Source: JBGPLH01 sp041486365 [NCBI: Thermodesulfobacteriota bacterium] (GTDB taxonomy: Bacteria > JAUYMQ01). Taken from it: a stretch of 7,315 nucleotides of DNA. Each line of letters opens with the position of its first letter. Within the stretch, counting starts at the first letter, position 1. The DNA is taken from assembly GCA_041486365.1 (NCBI GenBank), contig JBGPLH010000166.1:1-7315 (forward strand), read 5' to 3'. This document shows positions 1 to 7,315 of the stretch, in pieces. Below the pieces are notes generated by a model. The model worked only from the letters and a program-made list of their open reading frames with translations, ran no database searches and had not been told where the DNA came from. Both the position numbers and the translations under genes were made by a program.

Positions 1-354
1 ACGCTCCGCTACCAGGGGCGCGATCTGGGACGCGACGCCAACTACGAGTGGGCCCGGGCGCGCTTCAATGTCTACCGGGGCCACGAGTACATCGCCGACA
101 TGGTGCCCGCGAAGAACTTCTACCTCGCGAGCCAGCAGCCCACGACGGAGGTGGCCATTCGCACGAGCCTGCGCGAGGACCTCTACATCGCCCTGGCCGC
201 CGTGAACGAGGATGGCTCCGTCACCTTCAAGGTCTTCCTGAATCCCCTCGTCCAGTGGATCTGGATCGGCGGCACGATCTTCGCCCTCGGCACGCTGATC
301 ATCATGTGGCCGGATCCGCTGGACCGCCGCTACCTCACCCCGAAGTATGCCTGA
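1..354 (+). CDS. ccmF: Cytochrome c haem lyase subunit CcmF, C-terminal fragment
   Basis: This is the last 117 residues of CcmF, the large polytopic membrane subunit that takes haem from CcmE and, with CcmH/CcmI, attaches it to apocytochrome c in the periplasm. The reading frame is open from base 1, so the gene starts outside the window; the WWD haem-binding region of the family would lie upstream. Visible here are the periplasmic segment before the last helix, with the CcmF-like stretch TEVAIRTSLREDLYIAL (about residues 49-65), and the final transmembrane helix NPLVQWIWIGGTIFALGTLI (81-100), followed by a short basic tail. These match the usual C-terminal end of the family. The stop is TGA at 352-354, and ccmH follows directly without an intervening ccmG. 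Identity is confident from these motifs and from the ccm genes downstream. Confidence 0.93.
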   Translation, partial: TLRYQGRDLGRDANYEWARARFNVYRGHEYIADMVPAKNFYLASQQPTTEVAIRTSLREDLYIALAAVNEDGSVTFKVFLNPLVQWIWIGGTIFALGTLIIMWPDPLDRRYLTPKYA

Positions 355-357
355 GGA

Positions 358-397
358 CCCGGGATCCCTTCGGCCTCCTCTTCGGGGGGAATCCGGG
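358..397 (+). other. Imperfect hairpin between ccmF and ccmH
   Basis: Bases 358-368 can pair with 387-397: CCCGG with CCGGG, then AT with AT, then CCC with GGG, with one bulged base on each arm, closing an 18-base loop. It lies in the short spacer between the ccmF stop and the proposed ccmH ribosome binding site at 401-406. No T-run follows, so it is not a typical intrinsic terminator. It could affect mRNA stability or ccmH translation, but chance pairing is common in DNA this rich in G and C. Confidence 0.25.
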
Positions 398-400
398 AGC

Positions 401-406
401 GGAGGT
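401..406 (+). promoter_or_regulatory. Ribosome binding site that favours the TTG start of ccmH
   Basis: GGAGGT lies three bases before a TTG codon at 410. The in-frame ATG at 347, inside the end of ccmF, has no comparable purine-rich stretch before it. Only 11 of the 20 codons from 350 to 409 end in G or C, against 19 of the 20 codons starting at 410. Both observations place the start at 410. Confidence 0.6.
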
Positions 407-409
407 CCC

Positions 410-919
410 TTGCCGCTTCGCATCTCGCGCCGCGCGCTGCTGTCCCTCGCGATCCCCGCGGCGGTGCTCATCCTTGCTCCCGCGTCCACGCCGGCCGCGG
501 CTGCGGGAAAGCCAAAGGTCACCCGCAAGGAGATCGAGCGGGCGATCATGTGCCCCTGTGAGGAGAAGTGCGGCAAGGTCCTCGCCAATTGCTTCTGCGA
601 CTACTCGGGTGCCTTCCGCAAGGACATCGACCGGATGATCGCCCAGGGGATGACGCGCGAGCAGATCCTCGCCGCGCTCGTGAAGACCTACGGCCCCACG
701 GTGCTCGCGGCGCCGGGTACCTCGAACTGGCTGGACATCGCGTCCTGGGTCCTTCCCTTCCTCGCCCTGGCGCTCGGCGCGTGGGCGATCACGCTCCTCT
801 TGCGCCGCTGGGCGTCTCCGCGGCTCCCACCTCCCCCTCCTCCCGCCGCGGGACCCCCCGCCGGCGGCTCCGCCTACGAGTCCCGGCTCGATGACGAGCT
901 GTCGCGGTTCGAGACGTGA
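410..919 (+). CDS. ccmH: Cytochrome c maturation thiol protein CcmH (variant cysteine cluster)
   Basis: CcmH is a membrane-anchored periplasmic protein that handles the CxxCH thiols of apocytochrome c before haem ligation. From the TTG at 410 it has 169 residues: a signal/anchor segment (about 4-32), a cysteine-rich helical domain (33-100), a helix beginning IASWVLPFLALALGAW (about 110-131), a polyproline linker and an acidic tail with DDELSRFE, a common CcmH ending. The stretch TREQILAALVKTYGPTVLAAP is typical of the family. The catalytic region is unusual: in place of LRCxxC it reads MCPC, then KC, then NCFC, giving five cysteines at 48, 50, 54, 61 and 63. Similar CPC-type forms occur in some non-proteobacterial CcmH proteins, as far as I recall. 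An ATG at 347, overlapping the ccmF stop, would add 21 residues, but it lacks a ribosome binding site and its codons lack the gene's bias. The stop overlaps the next start as TGATG. Confidence 0.87.
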   Translation: MPLRISRRALLSLAIPAAVLILAPASTPAAAAGKPKVTRKEIERAIMCPCEEKCGKVLANCFCDYSGAFRKDIDRMIAQGMTREQILAALVKTYGPTVLAAPGTSNWLDIASWVLPFLALALGAWAITLLLRRWASPRLPPPPPPAAGPPAGGSAYESRLDDELSRFET

Positions 920-1407
920 TGGGCTCCCTTGTCGTCGCCGCGATCATCGGAGCGATCGCCCTCGTCTTCGTCCTGCTCCCGCTCCACCGCCCTTCCCGAC
1001 CCGAGCCTCCGGCGCGCCCGGAGTCGGAGGCTGACGCGCTCTACCGCGAGAAGGAGAGCGTGTACCACGCCATCCGGGAAATGGAGTTTGACTATCGCAC
1101 GGGAAAGGTCTCCGACGAGGACTACGGGGCGCTCATGGCGCGCTACCGCGCGAAGGCGATCGAGCTCATAAAGAAGATCGACTCGCTCGAGGCCGAGTCC
1201 GTCGCCGCCGGGGCCGAGGCCTGGCACGGCCGGGTGGAGCAGGAGATGCGCGCCGCGCTCGCCGCCGATCCGAGGACGGCCGCGCCGCTCCCGGTCTGTG
1301 CGGGATGCGGGCAGCAGAATCTCCCGATCCATCGCTTCTGCACTCGCTGCGGCTTCCCCGTGCCCGAAACGGCCGGGACCACCGCGACCCCCAAGGAGCG
1401 ATCATGA
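919..1407 (+). CDS. CcmI N-terminal-like membrane protein with C-terminal zinc ribbon
   Basis: This 162-residue protein has an N-terminal transmembrane helix (about 3-22) followed by a basic, proline-rich stretch. Next is a charged helical segment (38-93) with the pattern YREKESVYHAIREMEFDYRT, then GKVSDEDYGALMARY, which resembles the cytoplasmic helical part of CcmI and related proteins encoded in ccm operons. The C-terminus is a zinc ribbon with C127xxC130 and C141xxC144. Positive charge just after the helix suggests that the helical region and ribbon are cytoplasmic. The periplasmic TPR part of full-length CcmI is missing here but may be supplied by the gene at 2425-3060. A GTG at 916 would add one residue; the ATG at 919 overlaps the ccmH stop. 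The gene ends in an ATGA overlap with its successor. Membrane anchor and ribbon are read directly from the sequence, while the CcmI relationship is inferred from sequence pattern and position. Confidence 0.8.
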   Translation: MGSLVVAAIIGAIALVFVLLPLHRPSRPEPPARPESEADALYREKESVYHAIREMEFDYRTGKVSDEDYGALMARYRAKAIELIKKIDSLEAESVAAGAEAWHGRVEQEMRAALAADPRTAAPLPVCAGCGQQNLPIHRFCTRCGFPVPETAGTTATPKERS

Positions 1408-2381
1408 GAAGGTTTCACGCCCGGCTCCTGCCCCTTCTCTTCGCGCTCGTTTCGACGCCGGCGCTGGCCGGCGCGATCTCCGGCACGGTGCTCGATCGGA
1501 CGTCCGACCGCCCGGCGCCGGAGGTGGGGGTCCTCCTCTTCCACCCGGGCAACCCGGAGCCGATCGATCGCGCCGTCTCGGACGCGAAGGGGCGGTTCGC
1601 CTTCCGCGAGGTGGCGCCCGGTGACTACCTCCTCGGTGCGACGCACCTCGGCGTGCCCTACCTGCGAAGCGGCGTGCGCGTGGGTGCCGGCGCTTCCGAG
1701 TCGACCGCCGACTTGTATGTCTACCAGTCCACGACCGATGCCTCGGTCGTGTCCGTCGAAGAGGACCACCTGATCCTCCAGCCGGAGGGCGATGGCGCGC
1801 GGGCGATCGAGATCGTGGTCTACAACAACGCCGGCAACCGCACCTACCTCGGTGAAACCACGCCCGCCTCTCCCACGGGGCACCGCCTGGTCGTGCCGCT
1901 CCCGGAGGGGTACACGGACCTCGACGGGCCGGAAGGGATCGGCGACAGGATCGCGAGCCACACGGAAACCGGTGTCGATCTCGTCCTGCCGCTCGAGCCC
2001 GGAAAGACGCAGATCGCCTTCACCTATCGTCTTCCGGGTGGATCCTTCGGCATGAACCTCGCCCGACGCTTCCCCTACCCCGTGAAGAGCGCGAGCGTGC
2101 TTCTCCCGGTGAGCGGCGGGTGGCGCGTCCGGTCGCGCGACCTGGGACGCATGCGTCAGGTGAAACTCCAGGAGAAGCCGTACCAGGTCGCGTCCGGGGG
2201 CCCGTTCCCGCGGGGCAAGGTCGTCTCGGCGCGGGCCTACGCGGGTTTGCTGGGGACAGGGCTCGCTCCCGAGCGCGCCGCGTGGGCCGCCGGGGGCGTG
2301 GTGATCGCGGGGCTTTCGCTCGCATGGATCCTCCGCCAGGGCCGGGCCGCAAGCGGCGGCGCGGCGGGGGGGACCGCCTGA
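1404..2381 (+). CDS. Exported, membrane-anchored carboxypeptidase-regulatory-like domain protein
   Basis: This 325-residue protein has a signal peptide (basic MRRFHAR, a hydrophobic core, probable cleavage after ALA at 22). The domain that follows (about 24-90) has the pattern GAISGTVLDRTS, SDAKGRFAFREVAPGDYLLGA, typical of the carboxypeptidase-regulatory-like beta-sandwich. A second, probably beta-rich region (about 105-260) carries no motif I recognise. One transmembrane helix (about 293-310) near the C-terminus is followed by a short basic, glycine/alanine-rich tail. The predicted topology is a large periplasmic part anchored at its C-terminus. The ATG at 1404 is chosen because it overlaps the previous stop as ATGA, has AAGGAG at 1393-1398, and begins a clean signal peptide; upstream in-frame ATG codons lie inside the preceding gene. 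There is no catalytic motif. Its place in the ccm operon suggests a structural or docking role in haem or apocytochrome handling, but the function is unknown. Confidence 0.85.
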   Translation: MRRFHARLLPLLFALVSTPALAGAISGTVLDRTSDRPAPEVGVLLFHPGNPEPIDRAVSDAKGRFAFREVAPGDYLLGATHLGVPYLRSGVRVGAGASESTADLYVYQSTTDASVVSVEEDHLILQPEGDGARAIEIVVYNNAGNRTYLGETTPASPTGHRLVVPLPEGYTDLDGPEGIGDRIASHTETGVDLVLPLEPGKTQIAFTYRLPGGSFGMNLARRFPYPVKSASVLLPVSGGWRVRSRDLGRMRQVKLQEKPYQVASGGPFPRGKVVSARAYAGLLGTGLAPERAAWAAGGVVIAGLSLAWILRQGRAASGGAAGGTA

Positions 2382-2428
2382 TGGACAGGCGCGTGGGCGT
2401 CACGGTTCCGGAAAGGTCGATCGGATGA
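2381..2428 (+). CDS. Possible 15-codon coupling mini-ORF
   Basis: An ATG at 2381 overlaps the preceding stop as TGATG. It opens 15 codons (MDRRVGVTVPERSIG) and ends with a TGA at 2426-2428 that overlaps the next gene's ATG as ATGA. It exactly bridges the only sizeable gap in this part of the operon, and 12 of its 15 codons end in G or C. It could carry ribosomes from one gene to the next, or be a chance reading frame in GC-rich DNA. There is no homology evidence that the peptide itself matters. Confidence 0.22.
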   Translation: MDRRVGVTVPERSIG

Positions 2429-3060
2429 GCCCGTTCGGCGTGGTCTGCGCGAAGTGCGGTGCCGGGATGCCGATGGGCGTTGCCTTTTGCGGGAGCTGCG
2501 GGACGCGGATAGCGGACGAGGCGGCGGCACCCCGGCAGGAGGCGCCCGCGCCGAGGTCCGCCAGCACGCGCATGCTGATCGTCGCCTGGGCTCTCGGGCT
2601 TGTCGCGGGTCTCTTCCTCGGTCGCGCGTTCGCCCCCGTCACCTCCGGCGGAGGGGATGGCGGTGAATCGCGTCCCGTGGCGGAGTCGCAGGCCCCAAGC
2701 CCGGTGGATGTCCTCGCCTCCGCGCGCGCGGCCTCGGACGCGGGGCGGTACGCCGAGGCGCGCGATCTGTACCGGCGCGCCCTGAGGATGGATCCGGGTG
2801 ATCTGTCGGCCCACGTGGATCTCGGCGTCGCGGAGCTCGCCCTCGGCGACGAGGCCGCCGCGCGCGCGTCCTTCGGCGCAGCCCTCGCCGGCGGCTCGCC
2901 CCACCCCGCCGCTGCCTACAACCTCGCCAAGCTCGCCGAGGAAGGGGGCAACCGGGTCGAGGCCGGGAAGTACTACATCCTCTATCTGAGGCTCGCGCCT
3001 GAGGGCCCCCACGCGAGGGAGGTCCGCTCCAAGCTGGCAAAACAGGGCGCGTCCCGGTGA
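2425..3060 (+). CDS. Zinc-ribbon, single-helix membrane protein with periplasmic TPR domain
   Basis: This 211-residue protein begins with a zinc ribbon (C8xxC11 and C22xxC25), followed by an alanine/proline-rich linker and one transmembrane helix (about 50-66). A flexible glycine/serine linker leads to about three tetratricopeptide repeats (94-193), including GRYAEARDLYRRALRMDPGD and AAYNLAKLAEEGGNRVEAGKYY. Arginines before the helix and acidic residues after it suggest that the ribbon is cytoplasmic and the TPR domain periplasmic. TPR domains in CcmI and in NrfG bind the C-terminus of apocytochromes, so this protein may supply that chaperone function here; this is inference from position and architecture. 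The start has GAAAGG at 2411-2416, and no upstream in-frame start exists back to the previous stop. Its stop overlaps the ccmA start as GTGA. Domain calls are confident and the role is tentative. Confidence 0.87.
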   Translation: MSPFGVVCAKCGAGMPMGVAFCGSCGTRIADEAAAPRQEAPAPRSASTRMLIVAWALGLVAGLFLGRAFAPVTSGGGDGGESRPVAESQAPSPVDVLASARAASDAGRYAEARDLYRRALRMDPGDLSAHVDLGVAELALGDEAAARASFGAALAGGSPHPAAAYNLAKLAEEGGNRVEAGKYYILYLRLAPEGPHAREVRSKLAKQGASR

Positions 3061-3800
3061 GCGGCGCGGCGGCGGACACTCCGGCGGAACCGGCGGCCGT
3101 GCGGGCCCGCGGCCTGCGGAAGGCCTTCGGGGCCCAGGTCGCGCTGGATGGCATCGATCTCGATCTGCCCGCCGGCACGTTCCTGACCCTCGTGGGTCCC
3201 AACGGCGCGGGGAAGACAACGCTGCTCCGGATGCTGGCGGGCCTCTCGCGGCCGAGCGGCGGCGAGTTGCGCGTGCTGGGCGTGGTCCCCGGCCCCTCGG
3301 CGGCCGCGCTCCGGGCCCGCGTCGGACTCGTGTCCCACGAATCGCAGCTGTACGCCGACCTCTCGGCGGACGAGAACCTCCGCTTCTTCGCCTCGCTCTA
3401 CGGCGTTCCCGACCCGGAAGAGCGCATCGACGCGGCGCTCGCGCAGGTGGAGCTCCGGGCCCGGCGCGGCGACCCGGTGCGCGTGTTCTCGCGGGGGATG
3501 ACCCAGCGCCTTTCGATCGCTCGGGCGCTCCTGCACGAGCCGAGCCTGCTGCTCTTCGACGAGCCGACGACGGGCCTGGACGACCGCGCCGTCGGCATCA
3601 TGGTCGATCTCCTGGCGGAGCTTCACGACGGCGCGCGCACGCTGATCCTCACGACGCACCGCCTGGACGTCGGCCTGCGCGTCGCCGACCGCGTCGCCGT
3701 GCAGGCCCGCGGCCGGATCGTGCACGAGGCGGAGGCCGGGGCGATCGATCCGGCGTCCTTCGCGGGGTTGTACGCGTCGCTCACGGAGGGACGGGCGTGA
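3057..3800 (+). CDS. ccmA: Haem exporter ATP-binding subunit CcmA
   Basis: CcmA is the cytoplasmic ATPase of the CcmAB transporter; its ATP hydrolysis releases holo-CcmE from the CcmC complex. The 247-residue protein has the full set of ABC motifs: Walker A GPNGAGKT (47-54), Q-loop region SHESQLY (93-99), signature SRGMTQR (145-151), Walker B LLLFDEP (164-170) with catalytic E169, D-loop GLDD (173-176) and H-loop H201. The signature departs from the canonical LSGGQ, but SxGMxQR forms are seen in many functional ABC ATPases. The GTG start at 3057 overlaps the preceding stop as GTGA, with no strong ribosome binding site, so translation probably depends on coupling. The first 16 or so residues precede the ABC fold and are poorly conserved in type. 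The order ccmA-B-C-D that follows supports the CcmA assignment over other exporters of this ATPase family. Confidence 0.95.
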   Translation: MSGAAADTPAEPAAVRARGLRKAFGAQVALDGIDLDLPAGTFLTLVGPNGAGKTTLLRMLAGLSRPSGGELRVLGVVPGPSAAALRARVGLVSHESQLYADLSADENLRFFASLYGVPDPEERIDAALAQVELRARRGDPVRVFSRGMTQRLSIARALLHEPSLLLFDEPTTGLDDRAVGIMVDLLAELHDGARTLILTTHRLDVGLRVADRVAVQARGRIVHEAEAGAIDPASFAGLYASLTEGRA

Positions 3801-4504
3801 GCGGCGTGGCGGGCCGGGCCGCGCGCGTGTCCTTCGGCGGCGCGATGCTCGCGGTGATGCGCAAGGATCTGGCGCTCGAGTGGCGGACCCGGGAGATCTT
3901 CTCGGCCACCGTCGTCTTCGCCGCGCTGGTCCTGCTCACGATCAATTTCTCCTTCGATCCCGGACAGCGCGCCGTGGAGCAGATGGCGTCCGGGATCCTC
4001 TGGGTGGCCTTCGTGTTCGCCGGAATGCTTGGGCTCGGGCGCTCCTTCGTGGCGGAGCGGGAGAACGCCTGCCTCGACGCGCTGGCCCTCTCTCCGGCGG
4101 ATCCGGGGGCGATCTTCCTCGGGAAGGCCGCGGCAAACCTGATCTTCCTGGCCGTGACCGAGGCGATCGTGCTGCCGCTGTTCGCCGTGCTGTTCAACTT
4201 TCCGATGGGACGCGCTGTTCCGGGGCTCGTTCTTCCCCTCGCGCTCGGGAGCGTGGGGTTCGTGGGCGCCGGAACGCTGTTTGCAGCAATCTCGACCCAG
4301 ACGCGGATGCGGGAGGTGATGCTGCCGCTGCTCCTGCTCCCGGTGAGCGTCCCGGTGCTGATCGCGTCGGTGCGCCTCACGGGGACGGCCCTTGCGGGCC
4401 GCGCCCTCGCGGAATCGCTTCCCTGGATCGGGCTCCTCGTGCTCTGCGACGCGCTCTTCCTCGTCGCGGGGACGTTGTTGTTCGGCCATCTTCTGGAGGA
4501 TTGA
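3797..4504 (+). CDS. ccmB: Haem exporter permease subunit CcmB
   Basis: CcmB is the integral membrane partner of CcmA. The 235-residue protein starts with a short cytoplasmic segment ending KDLALEWRTRE, the usual entry to the first helix in this family. About six transmembrane helices follow (approximately 34-50, 63-80, 112-133, 142-165, 174-192 and 208-229). The cytoplasmic loop around SFVAERENACLDALALSP (83-100) and the stretch MREVMLPLLLLPVSVPVLIA (171-190) are characteristic of CcmB. Length is normal for the family. The GTG at 3797 overlaps the ccmA stop as GTGA and has GGAGGG at 3785-3790 with six bases of spacing, so both coupling and direct initiation are possible. No missing parts were noticed. 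Confidence 0.94.
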   Translation: MSGVAGRAARVSFGGAMLAVMRKDLALEWRTREIFSATVVFAALVLLTINFSFDPGQRAVEQMASGILWVAFVFAGMLGLGRSFVAERENACLDALALSPADPGAIFLGKAAANLIFLAVTEAIVLPLFAVLFNFPMGRAVPGLVLPLALGSVGFVGAGTLFAAISTQTRMREVMLPLLLLPVSVPVLIASVRLTGTALAGRALAESLPWIGLLVLCDALFLVAGTLLFGHLLED

Positions 4505-4514
4505 AGGTGAATCG

Positions 4515-5243
4515 ATGACAGAAACGGGCTCGCGCGTGCAGGACCGGATGGACGCGATCCTCCGGAAGGTGCGCAACGTGACCACGCCGCTGGCCGGCTT
4601 CGGCCTCATCGCGGCGGCGTACTTCATCGTGGGTTACGCGCCCGAGGAGGCGCAGCAGGGAATCGTTCAGAAGATCTTCTACGGCCACGTGGCGAGCGCC
4701 TGGGCGAGCTACCTCTGCTTCTTCATCACGTTCGTGTCGAGCGGGCTCTACCTCTGGAAGCGGGACCGCGCCTGGGATCTCCTGGCGCTCTCCGCCGCGG
4801 AAGTCGGCGTGGTGTTCTGCACCGCGGTCCTCCTGTCGGGCCCCTTCTGGGGGAAGCCGATCTGGGGCACCTGGTGGACCTGGGACGCGCGGCTCACGAC
4901 GACCCTGATCCTCTGGCTGATCTACGTGGGCTACCTGCTCCTGCGCCCCTTCGCGGGCGAGGGCGAGCGCGGCGCGCGGTTCGCCGCAGTGGTGGGGATC
5001 ATCGGCTTCCTCGACATCCCGCTGATCCATCTCTCGGTCCGCTGGTGGCGCACGCTGCACCCCCAACCGATCGTGATGAACGCGCGGGGGCCCCAGCTCC
5101 CGCCGGAAATGCTGACGACGCTGCTCGTCACGCTCGTGGCTTTCACCCTGCTTGCGGTGTCGTTCATCGCCATCCGCGCCGAGATCGAGCGCCTGCGGGA
5201 TCTCGCGGCGGTGCTCAGGCGGCGCGCGCTGCGGGAGGGGTGA
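4515..5243 (+). CDS. ccmC: Haem-handling protein CcmC (haem delivery to CcmE)
   Basis: CcmC is a polytopic membrane protein of the CcsA/CcmC/CcmF superfamily that binds haem in the periplasm and promotes its covalent attachment to CcmE. This 242-residue protein has about six helices. The tryptophan-rich WGTWWTWDARLT motif (117-128) forms the haem platform. The two expected axial histidines are H58 in YGHV and H182 in WWRTLHP, corresponding to H60 and H184 of Escherichia coli CcmC as I recall the numbering. The start is ATG 4515, ten bases past the ccmB stop, with AAGGTG at 4504-4509. Longer readings into ccmB are rejected because they overlap conserved CcmB sequence. The C-terminal arginine-rich helix (about 220-240) is cytoplasmic by charge. 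The stop overlaps the ccmD start as TGATG. Confidence 0.95.
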   Translation: MTETGSRVQDRMDAILRKVRNVTTPLAGFGLIAAAYFIVGYAPEEAQQGIVQKIFYGHVASAWASYLCFFITFVSSGLYLWKRDRAWDLLALSAAEVGVVFCTAVLLSGPFWGKPIWGTWWTWDARLTTTLILWLIYVGYLLLRPFAGEGERGARFAAVVGIIGFLDIPLIHLSVRWWRTLHPQPIVMNARGPQLPPEMLTTLLVTLVAFTLLAVSFIAIRAEIERLRDLAAVLRRRALREG

Positions 5244-5437
5244 TGAAGAACCTGCCCTATCTCCTCTGGGCCTACGTGTTGATCGGGCTTCTGATCTCGG
5301 TGTACGGGATGAGCCTCGTCCGGCGATTCCGACAGGTGGCGCAGGAGCTCGAGACGCTCGCCGCCGCTCTTCGCGCGCGCCGCGGCGAGGCGGTCCCGCC
5401 CCGCGCCGCGCCGCCGGCCTCTCAGCCTCCCGCCTGA
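5243..5437 (+). CDS. ccmD: Small haem exporter accessory protein CcmD
   Basis: CcmD is a small single-helix protein that stabilises the CcmABC-CcmE complex and helps release holo-CcmE. This 64-residue product has the expected layout: MKNLPYLLWAYVLIGLLISV, with its hydrophobic helix at about 5-25, then a basic, charged helical segment (RRFRQVAQELETLAAALRARR), then a proline/alanine-rich tail. The aromatic WAY at the start of the helix is a usual CcmD feature. The ATG overlaps the ccmC stop as TGATG, with a GGAGG-type ribosome binding site inside 5233-5240. Its 3' end overlaps the convergent otsB gene by 16 bases. The assignment rests on size, topology and place, because CcmD sequences are weakly conserved. 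Confidence 0.88.
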   Translation: MKNLPYLLWAYVLIGLLISVYGMSLVRRFRQVAQELETLAAALRARRGEAVPPRAAPPASQPPA

Positions 5438-6258
5438 GGAACCTCCCGCGTCTCGCGCCACAGGGCCTCGATCTCGCGAAGCCCCGGGATCACCTCCTCC
5501 TGGCCACGCAGCCTGTAACGGGCCCGCGTCTTCTTCGGGCTCCCCACGACGATGGGAATCCCGTCCCGCGCGAAGGCCGCGAAGAAGTCCTCGTCGGTCT
5601 GGTCGTCACCGATCACGATCGCGAGGGCACCCGGCGCGATCTTCTCCTGCATGGCCCGCGCGCTACCCCCCTTCTCGACCGCCGCAATCCGCGCTTCCAG
5701 CATCTCCCGGCCGGGGACGAGGACGAGGCTCGACCCCTCGAGCACCTCACGGAAGGCGGCCTGCACGGCGTTGCGCATGCGCGCCGCCGCCGCCTTGGGG
5801 ACGCCGCTGAAGTGGAACGTGACGGCGTGCCGCTTGTCCTCGATCCGCGGCCCCGGCGCGCCCCGGAGCCGCTCCTGCACCGTCAGCAATAGCCGATCGA
5901 GATCCGCGCGCACCCGGTGGACGTCGATGCGTCCGGTGTGCGCGCGGATCGGCGGCCAGGTCTCCAGGCCGTGAAGCCCCGCCAGCCCCAGCTCCTGCAC
6001 CGGGAGCAGGCCGCGAAGCTCCTCGAGGCCGCGGCCGGACAGGACCGCCACACGGACCCCCGGCGTGCGGGCCAGCGATCCGAGCACCGACACGGTCTCG
6101 TCGGTGGGTCGGGCCAGCTCGGGCCTCTCGGCGCTCGGGAAGAGCGTGCCGTCGTAGTCCATCGCCACGAACAGCGACGTCGCGCCCGCCATGCGGGCGC
6201 GGATCTGTCGGCGGGCCGAATCGAAATGCGGGAGTACGCGGGCGGCGCGATCAACCAC
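5422..6258 (-). CDS. otsB: Trehalose-6-phosphate phosphatase OtsB
   Basis: This is a cytoplasmic Mg2+-dependent HAD-superfamily phosphatase that removes phosphate from trehalose-6-phosphate, the last step of the OtsA-OtsB route to the osmoprotectant trehalose. With the GTG start at 6258 it has 278 residues, a usual length. Motif I is DYDGTL (34-39) with nucleophile D34 and acid/base D36, motif II is in VLSGR (72-76), the cap-region signature is EDKRHAVTFHF (140-150), the lysine of motif III is in EKGGSA (195-200), and motif IV is GDDQTDEDFF (217-226). This set is diagnostic for the OtsB branch. The GTG is preferred because GGAGGG precedes it by five bases; ATG at 6192 would remove 22 residues but has no ribosome binding site and lies only ten codons before motif I. 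Longer readings would run into the upstream kinase gene. No otsA is in the window, so the substrate supply must be encoded elsewhere. Confidence 0.93.
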   Translation of the reverse strand: MVDRAARVLPHFDSARRQIRARMAGATSLFVAMDYDGTLFPSAERPELARPTDETVSVLGSLARTPGVRVAVLSGRGLEELRGLLPVQELGLAGLHGLETWPPIRAHTGRIDVHRVRADLDRLLLTVQERLRGAPGPRIEDKRHAVTFHFSGVPKAAAARMRNAVQAAFREVLEGSSLVLVPGREMLEARIAAVEKGGSARAMQEKIAPGALAIVIGDDQTDEDFFAAFARDGIPIVVGSPKKTRARYRLRGQEEVIPGLREIEALWRETREVPQAGG

Positions 6259-6262
6259 GGAA

Positions 6263-6281
6263 GCCCTCCGCGCGCGAGGGC
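6263..6281 (-). promoter_or_regulatory. Ribosome binding site of otsB inside a small hairpin
   Basis: On the minus strand the sequence GCCCTC, a seven-base GCGCGCG loop and GAGGGC form a perfect six-base-pair stem. The 3' arm holds five of the six bases of the GGAGGG ribosome binding site (6269 to 6264), which is five bases from the GTG start at 6258. The stem could reduce otsB initiation. A competing GCGCG/CGCGC pairing overlaps it. The ribosome binding site is well supported; a regulatory role for the stem is speculative. Confidence 0.45.
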
Positions 6282-6296
6282 GCGCATGCGACGAGT

Positions 6297-6326
6297 CTTC
6301 TAACACGGAACGCGCGGGCGCGACAA
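6297..6326 (-). promoter_or_regulatory. Weak sigma70-like promoter for otsB
   Basis: On the minus strand TTGTCG (6326-6321) and TAGAAG (6302-6297) lie 18 bases apart in the gap between the kinase gene and otsB. Each matches four of the six consensus bases. The -10 element lacks the important final T. The TAGAAG is in the only A/T-richer patch in this gap. otsB may instead be read through from the kinase gene. Confidence 0.25.
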
Positions 6327-6337
6327 CGCGGCCCCGC

Positions 6338-7315
6338 TCAAGCGCGGCCGCTGCGCCAGATGCCGAAGGCCAGGACGAGCGCGACAAGACCCGCGAGCCC
6401 CAGGCCCACGGCGCCCGCGACGATGCCGAGGGGGACGCCGAGAATCGCGGGCCCCTTCGGAAAGAGGAGGAAGAGAGTGGAGACGACGAGTGTCGCGGAG
6501 AGCACCATCGCGGCGGCGAGTCGGTTGGCCGACCGGGCGCGCGCGCGCGCGGAGATCCGGATCTGCGGAACGTCGAGCGAGAGGCGAAGATCCCCCCGGC
6601 GGAGCTTCCCCAGGACGTCCTCGATGGCGCCCGGCAGCATCCGGACCACGCGCCGGTAGTCCTCGATGGTGGCGGCGGCGCCCTTCATGAGGAAGTCCGG
6701 ATCGGTGATCTTGCGCACGTACATCCCGAGCAGGTACGGGCGCATGACCGAGAACGGATCGAACTCCGGCCAGAGCGCCTGCGCGACCGATTCGAGCGTG
6801 GCGATCGTCTTGGCCATGAGCATGATCTCCGCCGGGATGCGCACGTGGTGGCGCGCGATGATCTCGAAGAGGTCAGCGAGGTATCGCGCCACGTCGAGAC
6901 GGCGCAGCGGGAGATCGTTCCAGCGCTGCAGGAACTCGCGCGTCTCCGACTTGAGCCCCCGCACGTCCACGCGGTCGTCGATGAGCCCCATGTCCGAGAA
7001 GAGGCGGACCATGCGATCCATATCCTCGGTGAGGACCGCCACGAGGAACGTGAGCAGCTCGTCGATCCGCTCCGGGTCCACGGTGCCGATCATCCCGTAG
7101 TCGACGAGGCAGATCCGGTTGTCGGGGAGCACGAAGAAGTTGCCGGGATGGGGGTCGGCGTGGTAGGCGCCGAGCTCGAAGATCTGCTTCAGCACCAGAC
7201 GCGTGGCGTTCTCCGCTAACGACTTGCGGTCCAGACCCGCGCGATCGATCTCGTCGAGTCGGTCCACCTTGATCCCCGTCACCTGTTCCATGACGAGCAC
7301 GCGCGCGGTGCACAG
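6338..7315 (-). CDS. ABC1/AarF/UbiB-family atypical kinase, C-terminal part
   Basis: This 325-residue C-terminal part of an ABC1-family protein runs off the right edge, so the N-terminal region with the family KxGQ and nucleotide-binding motifs is outside the window. The frame is open to base 7315 and reads through the family pattern RVLVMEQVTGIKV. The catalytic loop HADPHPGNF (52-60 of the fragment) and the metal-binding LVDYGMIG (70-77) are intact; the latter has DYG in place of the more usual DFG. A long helical region follows, then a linker rich in arginine and alanine, then two hydrophobic helices at the C-terminus, as expected for membrane-associated UbiB-like proteins. These atypical kinases/ATPases support isoprenoid quinone biosynthesis or lipid homeostasis, so a link to respiration is plausible, but orthology to ubiB itself cannot be decided here. 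otsB follows 79 bases downstream on the same strand. Confidence 0.92.
   Translation of the reverse strand: MCTARVLVMEQVTGIKVDRLDEIDRAGLDRKSLAENATRLVLKQIFELGAYHADPHPGNFFVLPDNRICLVDYGMIGTVDPERIDELLTFLVAVLTEDMDRMVRLFSDMGLIDDRVDVRGLKSETREFLQRWNDLPLRRLDVARYLADLFEIIARHHVRIPAEIMLMAKTIATLESVAQALWPEFDPFSVMRPYLLGMYVRKITDPDFLMKGAAATIEDYRRVVRMLPGAIEDVLGKLRRGDLRLSLDVPQIRISARARARSANRLAAAMVLSATLVVSTLFLLFPKGPAILGVPLGIVAGAVGLGLAGLVALVLAFGIWRSGRA
6537..6550. repeat. Alternating GC tract of 14 bases inside the kinase gene
   Basis: Seven GC dinucleotides in a row lie within the coding region for the arginine/alanine stretch SARARARS of the ABC1-family protein. Such tracts can adopt Z-DNA and are prone to replication or sequencing slippage. 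The reading frame is intact across it and the two downstream hydrophobic helices are well formed, so no frameshift is indicated. Confidence 0.5.

What the first reader, a model, noticed from the sequence alone, without database searches (positions are those of the whole stretch)
919..3060. Possible split CcmI: two membrane proteins, each with an added zinc ribbon
Classical CcmI joins a membrane/helical N-terminal part to a periplasmic TPR part in one chain. Here one gene (919-1407) has the membrane helix plus a CcmI-like charged helical segment and another (2425-3060) has a membrane helix plus TPR repeats. Each carries a four-cysteine zinc ribbon, C-terminal in the first and N-terminal in the second. 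Charge distribution puts both ribbons in the cytoplasm. The ribbons could pair the two halves or sense metal or redox state. The domains are visible in the sequence, the CcmI roles are inference.
Basis: partly seen in the sequence, partly recalled or inferred. Interest (0 to 1): 0.62.

Follow-up and report, generated by a model that had tools for sequence, protein, structure and literature searches.

The report
Split cytochrome-c assembly protein with ribbons
A helper protein that many bacteria use as one chain when attaching heme to cytochromes seems here to be built from separate membrane proteins, two of which carry a small zinc-binding-type tag, and related layouts turn up in other bacteria.

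Summary
The window is a System I (ccm) operon: ccmF-ccmH-ORF A-ORF B-ORF C-ccmA-ccmB-ccmC-ccmD-like. ORF A (919-1407) has one membrane helix, a charged helical segment and a C-terminal four-cysteine ribbon. ORF C (2425-3060) has an N-terminal ribbon, one membrane helix and TPR repeats.

ORF A is a free-standing N-terminal part of CcmI. Sixteen of 24 stand-alone members (window included) match the CcmI model TIGR03142 at E<=0.01, the window's below cut-off. Their profile also finds single-chain CcmI-like proteins, one of them above the cut-off.

In 60 ccmH neighbourhoods of one phylum, 18 carry a single-chain CcmI, 17 carry ORF A plus ORF B, none both. Ribbons occur on 11 of 22 stand-alone ORF A relatives and 0 of 18 single chains.

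ORF C as the missing TPR half fits by topology and position but is unproven: its TPR is generic, and no relative with its whole architecture was found. In a second lineage, six clusters combine a ribboned ORF A, a ribbon-tailed beta protein and a separate TPR gene.

ORF B belongs to the story. Ribbon-ribbon pairing is not general. A new variant of a known kind.

The parts
1..354 (+). ccmF, 3' end
   Evidence: PF16327 CcmF_C E=1e-23
347..919 (+). ccmH-type thiol oxidoreductase
   Evidence: PF03918 E=4.4e-14
919..1407 (+). ORF A: stand-alone CcmI N-terminal part with a ribbon
   Evidence: TIGR03142 E=4.4e-4, 20.5 bits, below the 29.3 cut-off; the ORF A profile also matches single-chain CcmI-like proteins
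928..984 (+). membrane helix 1 (residues 4-22), N outside
   Evidence: hydropathy and charge
1027..1188 (+). CcmI-like cytoplasmic helical segment (about residues 37-90)
   Evidence: alignments A1 and A2; profile matches; boundaries by eye
1297..1362 (+). C-terminal four-cysteine ribbon (residues 127-148)
   Evidence: Zn_Ribbon_1 E=1.4e-4; aligned ribbons in relatives
1404..2381 (+). ORF B: predicted secreted beta protein with a C-terminal membrane helix (residues 292-310), without the cytoplasmic segment seen in its relatives
   Evidence: CarboxypepD_reg E=4.7e-11; family and tails; hydropathy
2425..3060 (+). ORF C: ribbon, membrane helix, TPR
2446..2508 (+). N-terminal ribbon (residues 8-28)
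   Evidence: Zn_Ribbon_1 E=2e-5; modelled with pLDDT 72-87 by ten-residue block
2569..2631 (+). membrane helix (residues 49-69)
2701..3042 (+). TPR domain, seven helices (residues 93-206)
   Evidence: TPR_16 E=3.3e-11; modelled, pLDDT mostly above 90
3057..3800 (+). ccmA
   Evidence: ABC_tran E=1.1e-30; TIGR01189 E=3.8e-37, 127.9 bits against a cut-off of 131.6
3797..4504 (+). ccmB
   Evidence: PF03379 E=8.1e-34
4515..5243 (+). ccmC
   Evidence: PF01578 E=1.3e-32; TIGR01191 E=2.7e-47, 161.1 bits against a cut-off of 186
5243..5437 (+). ccmD-like
   Evidence: TIGR04391 E=0.0031, 17.5 bits against a cut-off of 24

Best explanation
The operon encodes a System I cytochrome c maturase in which CcmI is dispersed over separate membrane proteins. 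ORF A is the CcmI-1 part: membrane helix 1 plus the cytoplasmic helical segment. ORF C most likely supplies the CcmI-2 part: a membrane helix and a periplasmic TPR domain that would hold apocytochrome c near CcmF and CcmH. The chain is cut in the cytoplasmic linker, and each new end carries a ribbon. ORF B is a third subunit with a periplasmic beta domain. In relatives, ORF B-type proteins carry a second copy of the CcmI-like segment, and a second family of secreted beta proteins carries a ribbon. So the cytoplasmic tails most likely hold the subunits together or dock them on a shared partner. Shown: operon context, domain content, ORF A kinship to CcmI. Inferred: ORF C as CcmI-2, apocytochrome binding, zinc binding, what the ribbons contact.
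For: TIGR03142 matches ORF A and in all 16 of 24 stand-alone members at E<=0.01. The ORF A profile matches single chains that go on through a second helix to TPR after ccmH, including one above the CcmI cut-off (31.5 against 29.3 bits). That chain (L034) aligns with ORF A in its first part and ORF C in its second, in a comparison against two sequences only. The annotated P. aeruginosa CcmI matches the profile at 1.3e-4 among 292 sequences. Of 20 loci fetched by ORF A profile match, 19 have the match within 3 kb of ccm genes. Two layouts exclude each other in 60 neighbourhoods: 18 single-chain, 17 ORF A plus ORF B, 0 both. ORF B tails share the ORF A segment (97% probability, E=1.5e-10 over 47 columns; the CcmI C-half alignment used as a contrast gives 1.3%). 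Six clusters of another lineage hold a ribboned ORF A, a ribboned beta protein, a separate TPR gene and ccmA-C. The published division of CcmI into CcmI-1 and CcmI-2 with different roles fits (PMC7676999, passage).
Against: ORF A scores below the CcmI cut-off. The annotated Cupriavidus CcmI gave no match to the ORF A profile; only an alignment of both annotated CcmIs did, at 64%. ORF C's TPR is generic: rank 13 of 25 proteins that matched a CcmI C-half profile, one of those above it being the profile's own member L023; the 50 fold-search rows shown are designed or unrelated TPR proteins. The single chain L023 matches ORF A but not ORF C. No relative of the whole ORF C was found: in 22 ORF A genomes 4 have matches, none reaching the ribbon; in 396 genomes 44 have matches, none of the listed rows spanning ribbon to TPR, with at most 7 candidates scored per genome. 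The 17 ORF A plus ORF B loci show no TPR gene in the stretch read, so ORF A can apparently do without one; the TPR probe was not fully sensitive (it missed 7 of 17 single chains). The window's ORF B lacks the tail. The window's genome is not held, so a full ccmI elsewhere cannot be excluded.
Confidence: 0.58

Rival explanations
1. Only ORF A, with ORF B, stands in for CcmI. ORF C is a separate ribbon-TPR membrane protein that joined the operon and does something else, such as holding another envelope protein. The system is then not a split CcmI but a CcmI-1 subunit with a beta-domain partner in place of the TPR half.
For: 17 of 60 neighbourhoods have ORF A plus ORF B, with no TPR gene found in them. 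ORF B tails carry the same segment as ORF A. ORF C's TPR is not CcmI-specific, and no equivalent of its whole architecture was found.
Against: ORF C lies inside the operon and overlaps ccmA by four bases. Its topology matches the missing half. Six clusters of another lineage also have a separate TPR gene. The window's ORF B lacks the segment that its relatives share with ORF A.
Confidence: 0.3
2. The ribbons are stand-alone regulators or docking tags (zinc or thiol state, or binding to the cytoplasmic ATPase CcmA) and have nothing to do with joining the two halves. This concerns the ribbons only and can hold together with either reading of ORF C.
For: ORF A has a ribbon in 11 of the 17 ORF A plus ORF B loci, where no second ribbon protein was seen. 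An N-terminal ribbon followed by a membrane helix also occurs on proteins outside ccm clusters (L153, L154). The protein next to ccmA is ORF C here and ORF A in several relatives.
Against: Ribbons were seen on cut chains (11 of 22) and not on single chains (0 of 18). In the second lineage they sit on two proteins of the same cluster.
Confidence: 0.35
3. ORF A and ORF C are unrelated to cytochrome c maturation and sit in the operon by chance.
For: Short helical and TPR sequences match weakly and widely.
Against: Of 62 ORF A-profile proteins in L002 and L023-L102 (one ORF B tail set aside), 59 lie within 3 kb of ccm genes and 3 do not (L066, L082, L099). Most of those loci were fetched through CcmH, so the fairer count is the 20 fetched by the profile itself: 19 of 20, the exception being at a contig end. 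The genes overlap their ccm neighbours.
Confidence: 0.04

Closest known systems
CcmI (CycH), single chain, e.g. annotated in P. aeruginosa and Cupriavidus
   Same: N-terminal membrane helix ending in a PL motif, a cytoplasmic helical segment, a second helix, then a TPR region; gene directly after the ccmH gene.
   Different: One chain of 407 and 415 residues; here two genes plus two ribbons, with ORF B between them.
E. coli CcmH (CcmH-CcmI fusion) and NrfG
   Same: Precedent that CcmI parts are moved between genes: the CcmI part is fused to CcmH in E. coli, and NrfG is a paralogue of that part (PMC3601427, passages).
   Different: No separate CcmI-1 protein and no ribbons are mentioned in the passages read.
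Cytobacillus firmus plasmid ccm operon (NZ_CP107028)
   Same: Gene order ccmE-ccmF-ccmH-[ORF A relative]-[ORF B relative]-ABC ATPase-ccmB-ccmC.
   Different: No ribbon on either protein and no TPR gene found in the 24.6 kb read; the ORF B relative has the CcmI-like tail. Both proteins are annotated as hypothetical.
   Same: Ribboned ORF A followed by ccmA-C, a secreted beta protein, and a separate TPR gene in one cluster.
   Different: The second ribbon is on the beta protein, not on the TPR protein; the TPR gene lies upstream of ccmF.

Membership tests
CcmI (NCBIfam TIGR03142) | score over the curated cut-off (29.3 bits) | tested here: not met
   ORF A 20.5 bits; 16 of 24 members, window included, match at E<=0.01
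CcmI | N-terminal membrane helix followed by a cytoplasmic helical segment | tested here: met
   ORF A
CcmI | second membrane helix and TPR in the same chain | tested here: not met
   ORF A ends after the ribbon; helix and TPR are in ORF C
CcmI | location in the ccm operon, after ccmH | tested here: met
   ORF A shares one base with ccmH
CcmI | TPR half more similar to CcmI than to ordinary TPR proteins (my criterion) | tested here: not met
   ORF C 37.4 bits, rank 13 of 25
CcmI | binds apocytochrome c and associates with CcmF and CcmH | not testable with these tools
   needs experiment
CcmI | no other ccmI in the genome (for the split reading) | not testable with these tools
   no genome held for the window
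Zinc ribbon (Pfam Zn_Ribbon_1) | score over the gathering cut-off (25 bits) | tested here: not met
   21.9 and 24.7 bits
Zinc ribbon (Pfam Zn_Ribbon_1) | four cysteines in two CxxC pairs | tested here: met
   both proteins
System I (Ccm) operon | ccmA, ccmB, ccmC, ccmF, ccmH together | tested here: met
   ccmE and ccmG are not in the window

The most novel reading that the evidence does not exclude
In many bacteria with System I, CcmI is not one protein but an assembly. A CcmI-1 subunit (ORF A) is joined through duplicated cytoplasmic tails (CcmI-like segments or ribbons) to exchangeable periplasmic partners, either a TPR protein or a beta-domain protein, and the beta protein can replace the TPR half altogether.
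Probability: 0.4. Interest if true: 0.72.

Novelty: new variant of a known kind. Interest (0 to 1): 0.56.

Why it matters
How System I hands apocytochrome c to the heme lyase is still debated. The division of CcmI into CcmI-1 and CcmI-2 with different roles comes from work on Rhodobacter capsulatus (known to me through PMC7676999, passage; the original paper was not held). Operons in which the parts are natural separate proteins would let each be removed and tested alone, and would show whether a beta domain can replace the TPR chaperone.

Tried and rejected
Window genome: none held. Viral contigs with ccmC, ccmH, ORF A and ORF C: no relatives. Plasmids: ccmC 60 records, ORF A one ribbon match, ORF C nothing, the Cytobacillus ORF A relative two records. 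Fold search with ORF C: generic TPR. ORF B model too poor to use (mean pLDDT 39). Link between ORF B and the second beta-protein family: weak (70% over 63 columns), so not claimed. ORF A profile against the PDB: best E=0.13, a ribosomal ribbon protein. Rejected: ORF C as a CcmI member by TPR sequence; ribbon pairing as a general rule.

Rows handled: of 62 CcmH places, 60 were fetched at first; G160:C129 came later (L089) and G044:C26 was never fetched. Of the 60 loci, 18 are single-chain, 17 ORF A plus ORF B, 6 ORF A alone, 19 neither. Among the 19, L024 and L036 by eye carry segment-helix-TPR without the first helix and L026 has a CcmH joined to TPR; the others were not read by eye for a TPR half. 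L053 was moved to single-chain by eye. L082 has a masked stretch and was left out of the ribbon count. L078 runs to a contig edge and could have lost a ribbon. All 11 ribbons among the 22 are in ORF A plus ORF B loci. L083-L102 were chosen partly for ribbon coverage, so the larger count tested (26 of 44 against 0 of 18, with L097 and L099 added by eye) is biased; the 11 of 22 count is from the first 60 only. Gene calls are stop-to-stop frames, not a trained gene caller. ORF B tails: a pattern found 21 of 26; three more show the segment by eye and two are cut by contig ends. In the second lineage L137, L138, L140 and L142 have a ribboned ORF A but no TPR gene and no ccmB/ccmC match in the stretch read; L137, L140 and L142 are second copies in the genomes of L143, L139 and L136. 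L089, L091 and L093 have a ribboned ORF A and ccmA-C but no beta protein or TPR gene on the stretch read; L092 and L094 have the ribboned beta protein but no TPR gene on their contigs.

Full report
WHAT IS THERE. The window holds a System I operon on the plus strand: the end of ccmF, ccmH, ORF A, ORF B, ORF C, ccmA, ccmB, ccmC and a ccmD-like gene. ORF A and ORF C lie at the stated coordinates. Junctions are tight: ORF A shares one base with ccmH, ORF A and ORF B overlap by four, ORF C and ccmA by four; a gap of 43 bases separates ORF B from ORF C.

THE TWO PROTEINS. ORF A has one membrane helix (4-22), a charged helical segment, and a C-terminal ribbon (127-148). ORF C has a ribbon (8-28), one helix (51-69) and TPR repeats. 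Flanking charge places both ribbons in the cytoplasm and the TPR outside, by a simple rule. The ORF C model, folded from one sequence, agrees in its parts (mean pLDDT 80.9). Zinc binding is inferred, not shown.

ORF A IS CcmI-DERIVED. ORF A matches TIGR03142 at E=4.4e-4, below the curated cut-off. Near ccmH or ccmF in many of them lie relatives of ORF A. Of 24 stand-alone members, window included, 16 match TIGR03142 at E<=0.01. The profile built from them also finds single-chain proteins with the segment, a further helix and a TPR-like region, most with a first helix in those with strong matches. One, in L034, passes the CcmI cut-off at 31.5 bits, the only one of 59 genomes to do so. It aligns with ORF A in its first part and with ORF C in its second, though in a comparison against only two sequences; the other chain, L023, aligns with ORF A but not with ORF C. 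Of two annotated CcmI proteins, that of P. aeruginosa matches the profile at 1.3e-4; Cupriavidus does not by itself, and an alignment of both gives 64% probability. Of the 20 loci fetched because of a profile match, 19 have the match within 3 kb of ccm genes, as do the ten further ones.

TWO OPERON LAYOUTS. In the 60 neighbourhoods first fetched, 18 have a single-chain CcmI, 17 have ORF A plus ORF B, and none has both; six have ORF A without ORF B and 19 neither. In the 17 genomes with ORF A plus ORF B the profile finds no second copy at E<=1e-4, with only the 10 best candidates scored per genome. With TIGR03142, one of the 17 (G179) has a second weak match away from the operon (22.8 bits), which by eye is a coiled-coil hydrolase-like protein. 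Ribbons are on 11 of 22 stand-alone ORF A proteins and on 0 of 18 single chains (p=3e-4 by Fisher's test, not corrected for kinship).

ORF B BELONGS TO THE STORY. ORF B has a predicted secreted N-terminal region with a CarboxypepD_reg domain and a C-terminal membrane helix. Its relatives carry, after that helix, a second copy of the CcmI-like segment: profile alignment with the ORF A family gives 97% probability and E=1.5e-10 over 47 columns, against 1.3% for the CcmI C-half alignment used as a contrast. By pattern 21 of 26 show it; three more show it by eye; two are cut by contig ends. In two genomes TIGR03142 itself matches inside an ORF B frame (G136 and G190). The window's ORF B ends 15 residues after the helix and lacks the segment. 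The Cytobacillus firmus plasmid operon has the segment on both proteins, and neither ribbon nor TPR gene.

A SECOND LINEAGE. In the class of G251, clusters carry a ribboned ORF A after ccmH and, upstream of ccmF, a secreted beta protein with a C-terminal ribbon. Six of them, in six genomes (L088, L090, L136, L139, L141, L143), also have a separate TPR gene, with an N-terminal helix by eye where the start is read (that of L141 is cut), and have ccmA, ccmB and ccmC after ORF A. Four others (L137, L138, L140, L142) lack a TPR gene and a ccmB/ccmC match in the stretch read; three of these are second copies in genomes already counted. So ORF A, a beta protein and a TPR protein recur together, with the second ribbon on a different partner than in the window. 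Elsewhere in the phylum L089, L091 and L093 have a ribboned ORF A with neither partner on the stretch read. Whether the two beta families are related is open (70% over 63 columns).

ORF C: WHAT COUNTS AGAINST IT. Its TPR is generic. With a profile of CcmI C-terminal halves it ranks 13 of 25 matching proteins, and the fold-search rows shown are designed or unrelated TPR proteins. Of 22 genomes with ORF A, 4 have a match, none reaching the ribbon. Of 396 genomes, 44 have a match; most rows are TPR only, a few ribbon and helix only, and none listed spans ribbon to TPR, with at most 7 candidates scored per genome. Three of the ribbon-side matches were read: none is a TPR protein. The case for ORF C rests on position, overlap with ccmA and topology.

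MECHANISM. I take ORF A to be the CcmI-1 subunit and ORF C the likely CcmI-2 subunit. CcmI-1 and CcmI-2 are described as parts with different roles in Rhodobacter capsulatus (PMC7676999, passage); [quoted passage not shown] The periplasmic TPR would hold apocytochrome c for CcmF and CcmH. The cytoplasmic tails would keep the subunits together or dock them on a common partner such as CcmA. Ribbon pairing as a rule is unlikely, since ORF A has its ribbon in 11 of 17 ORF A plus ORF B loci where no second ribbon protein was seen.

LITERATURE. A search for CcmI with zinc ribbon found 0 papers in the held library; CcmI with zinc, tetratricopeptide and CcmF found one, the review PMC3601427. Cytochrome c maturation with CcmF and Thermoleophilia found 0. 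CcmI with cytochrome c maturation and split listed 11 papers, of which I read passages of three (PMC3601427, PMC3884852, PMC7676999). A broader search listed 10, of which I read passages of PMC12285233 besides PMC7676999; another listed one, PMC9145763, passages read; CcmI-1 with CcmI-2 listed five, four of them on climate. The passages read did not describe this layout. The library holds open-licence papers only, so absence there is weak evidence.

VERDICT. ORF A as free-standing CcmI-1 is well supported (about 0.85). The split CcmI including ORF C is plausible (0.58). The finding is a new variant of a known system.

Noticed in passing
window 347-919: The ccmH product has a cysteine-rich stretch (CPCEEKCGKVLANCFC) rather than the single CxxC pair usually described for CcmH (recalled).
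   Followed up: no
window 1404-2381: ORF B lacks the CcmI-like cytoplasmic tail found on its relatives.
   Followed up: yes
L026 8587-9654: CcmH appears joined to a second helix and TPR-like region without the CcmI-like segment, resembling the E. coli CcmH arrangement.
   Followed up: no
L024 9199-9978 and L036 9254-10447: Single chains after ccmH with segment, helix and TPR but no first membrane helix.
   Followed up: partly
L060 and L133 (G011): ccm operon with a ribboned ORF A beside frames rich in CxxCH motifs (multiheme cytochromes by eye); a helix-TPR protein lies about 8 kb from ccmA on the same strand.
   Followed up: partly
L153 2191-3138 and L154 1737-3221: Ribbon followed by a membrane helix and a different outer domain, outside any ccm cluster in the stretch read: the ribbon-helix arrangement is not special to ccm.
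   Followed up: partly
window 5425-6387, minus strand: Trehalose-phosphatase gene (PF02358 E=5.6e-31), convergent with the ccm operon, followed by a UbiB/AarF-like frame (by eye).
   Followed up: no
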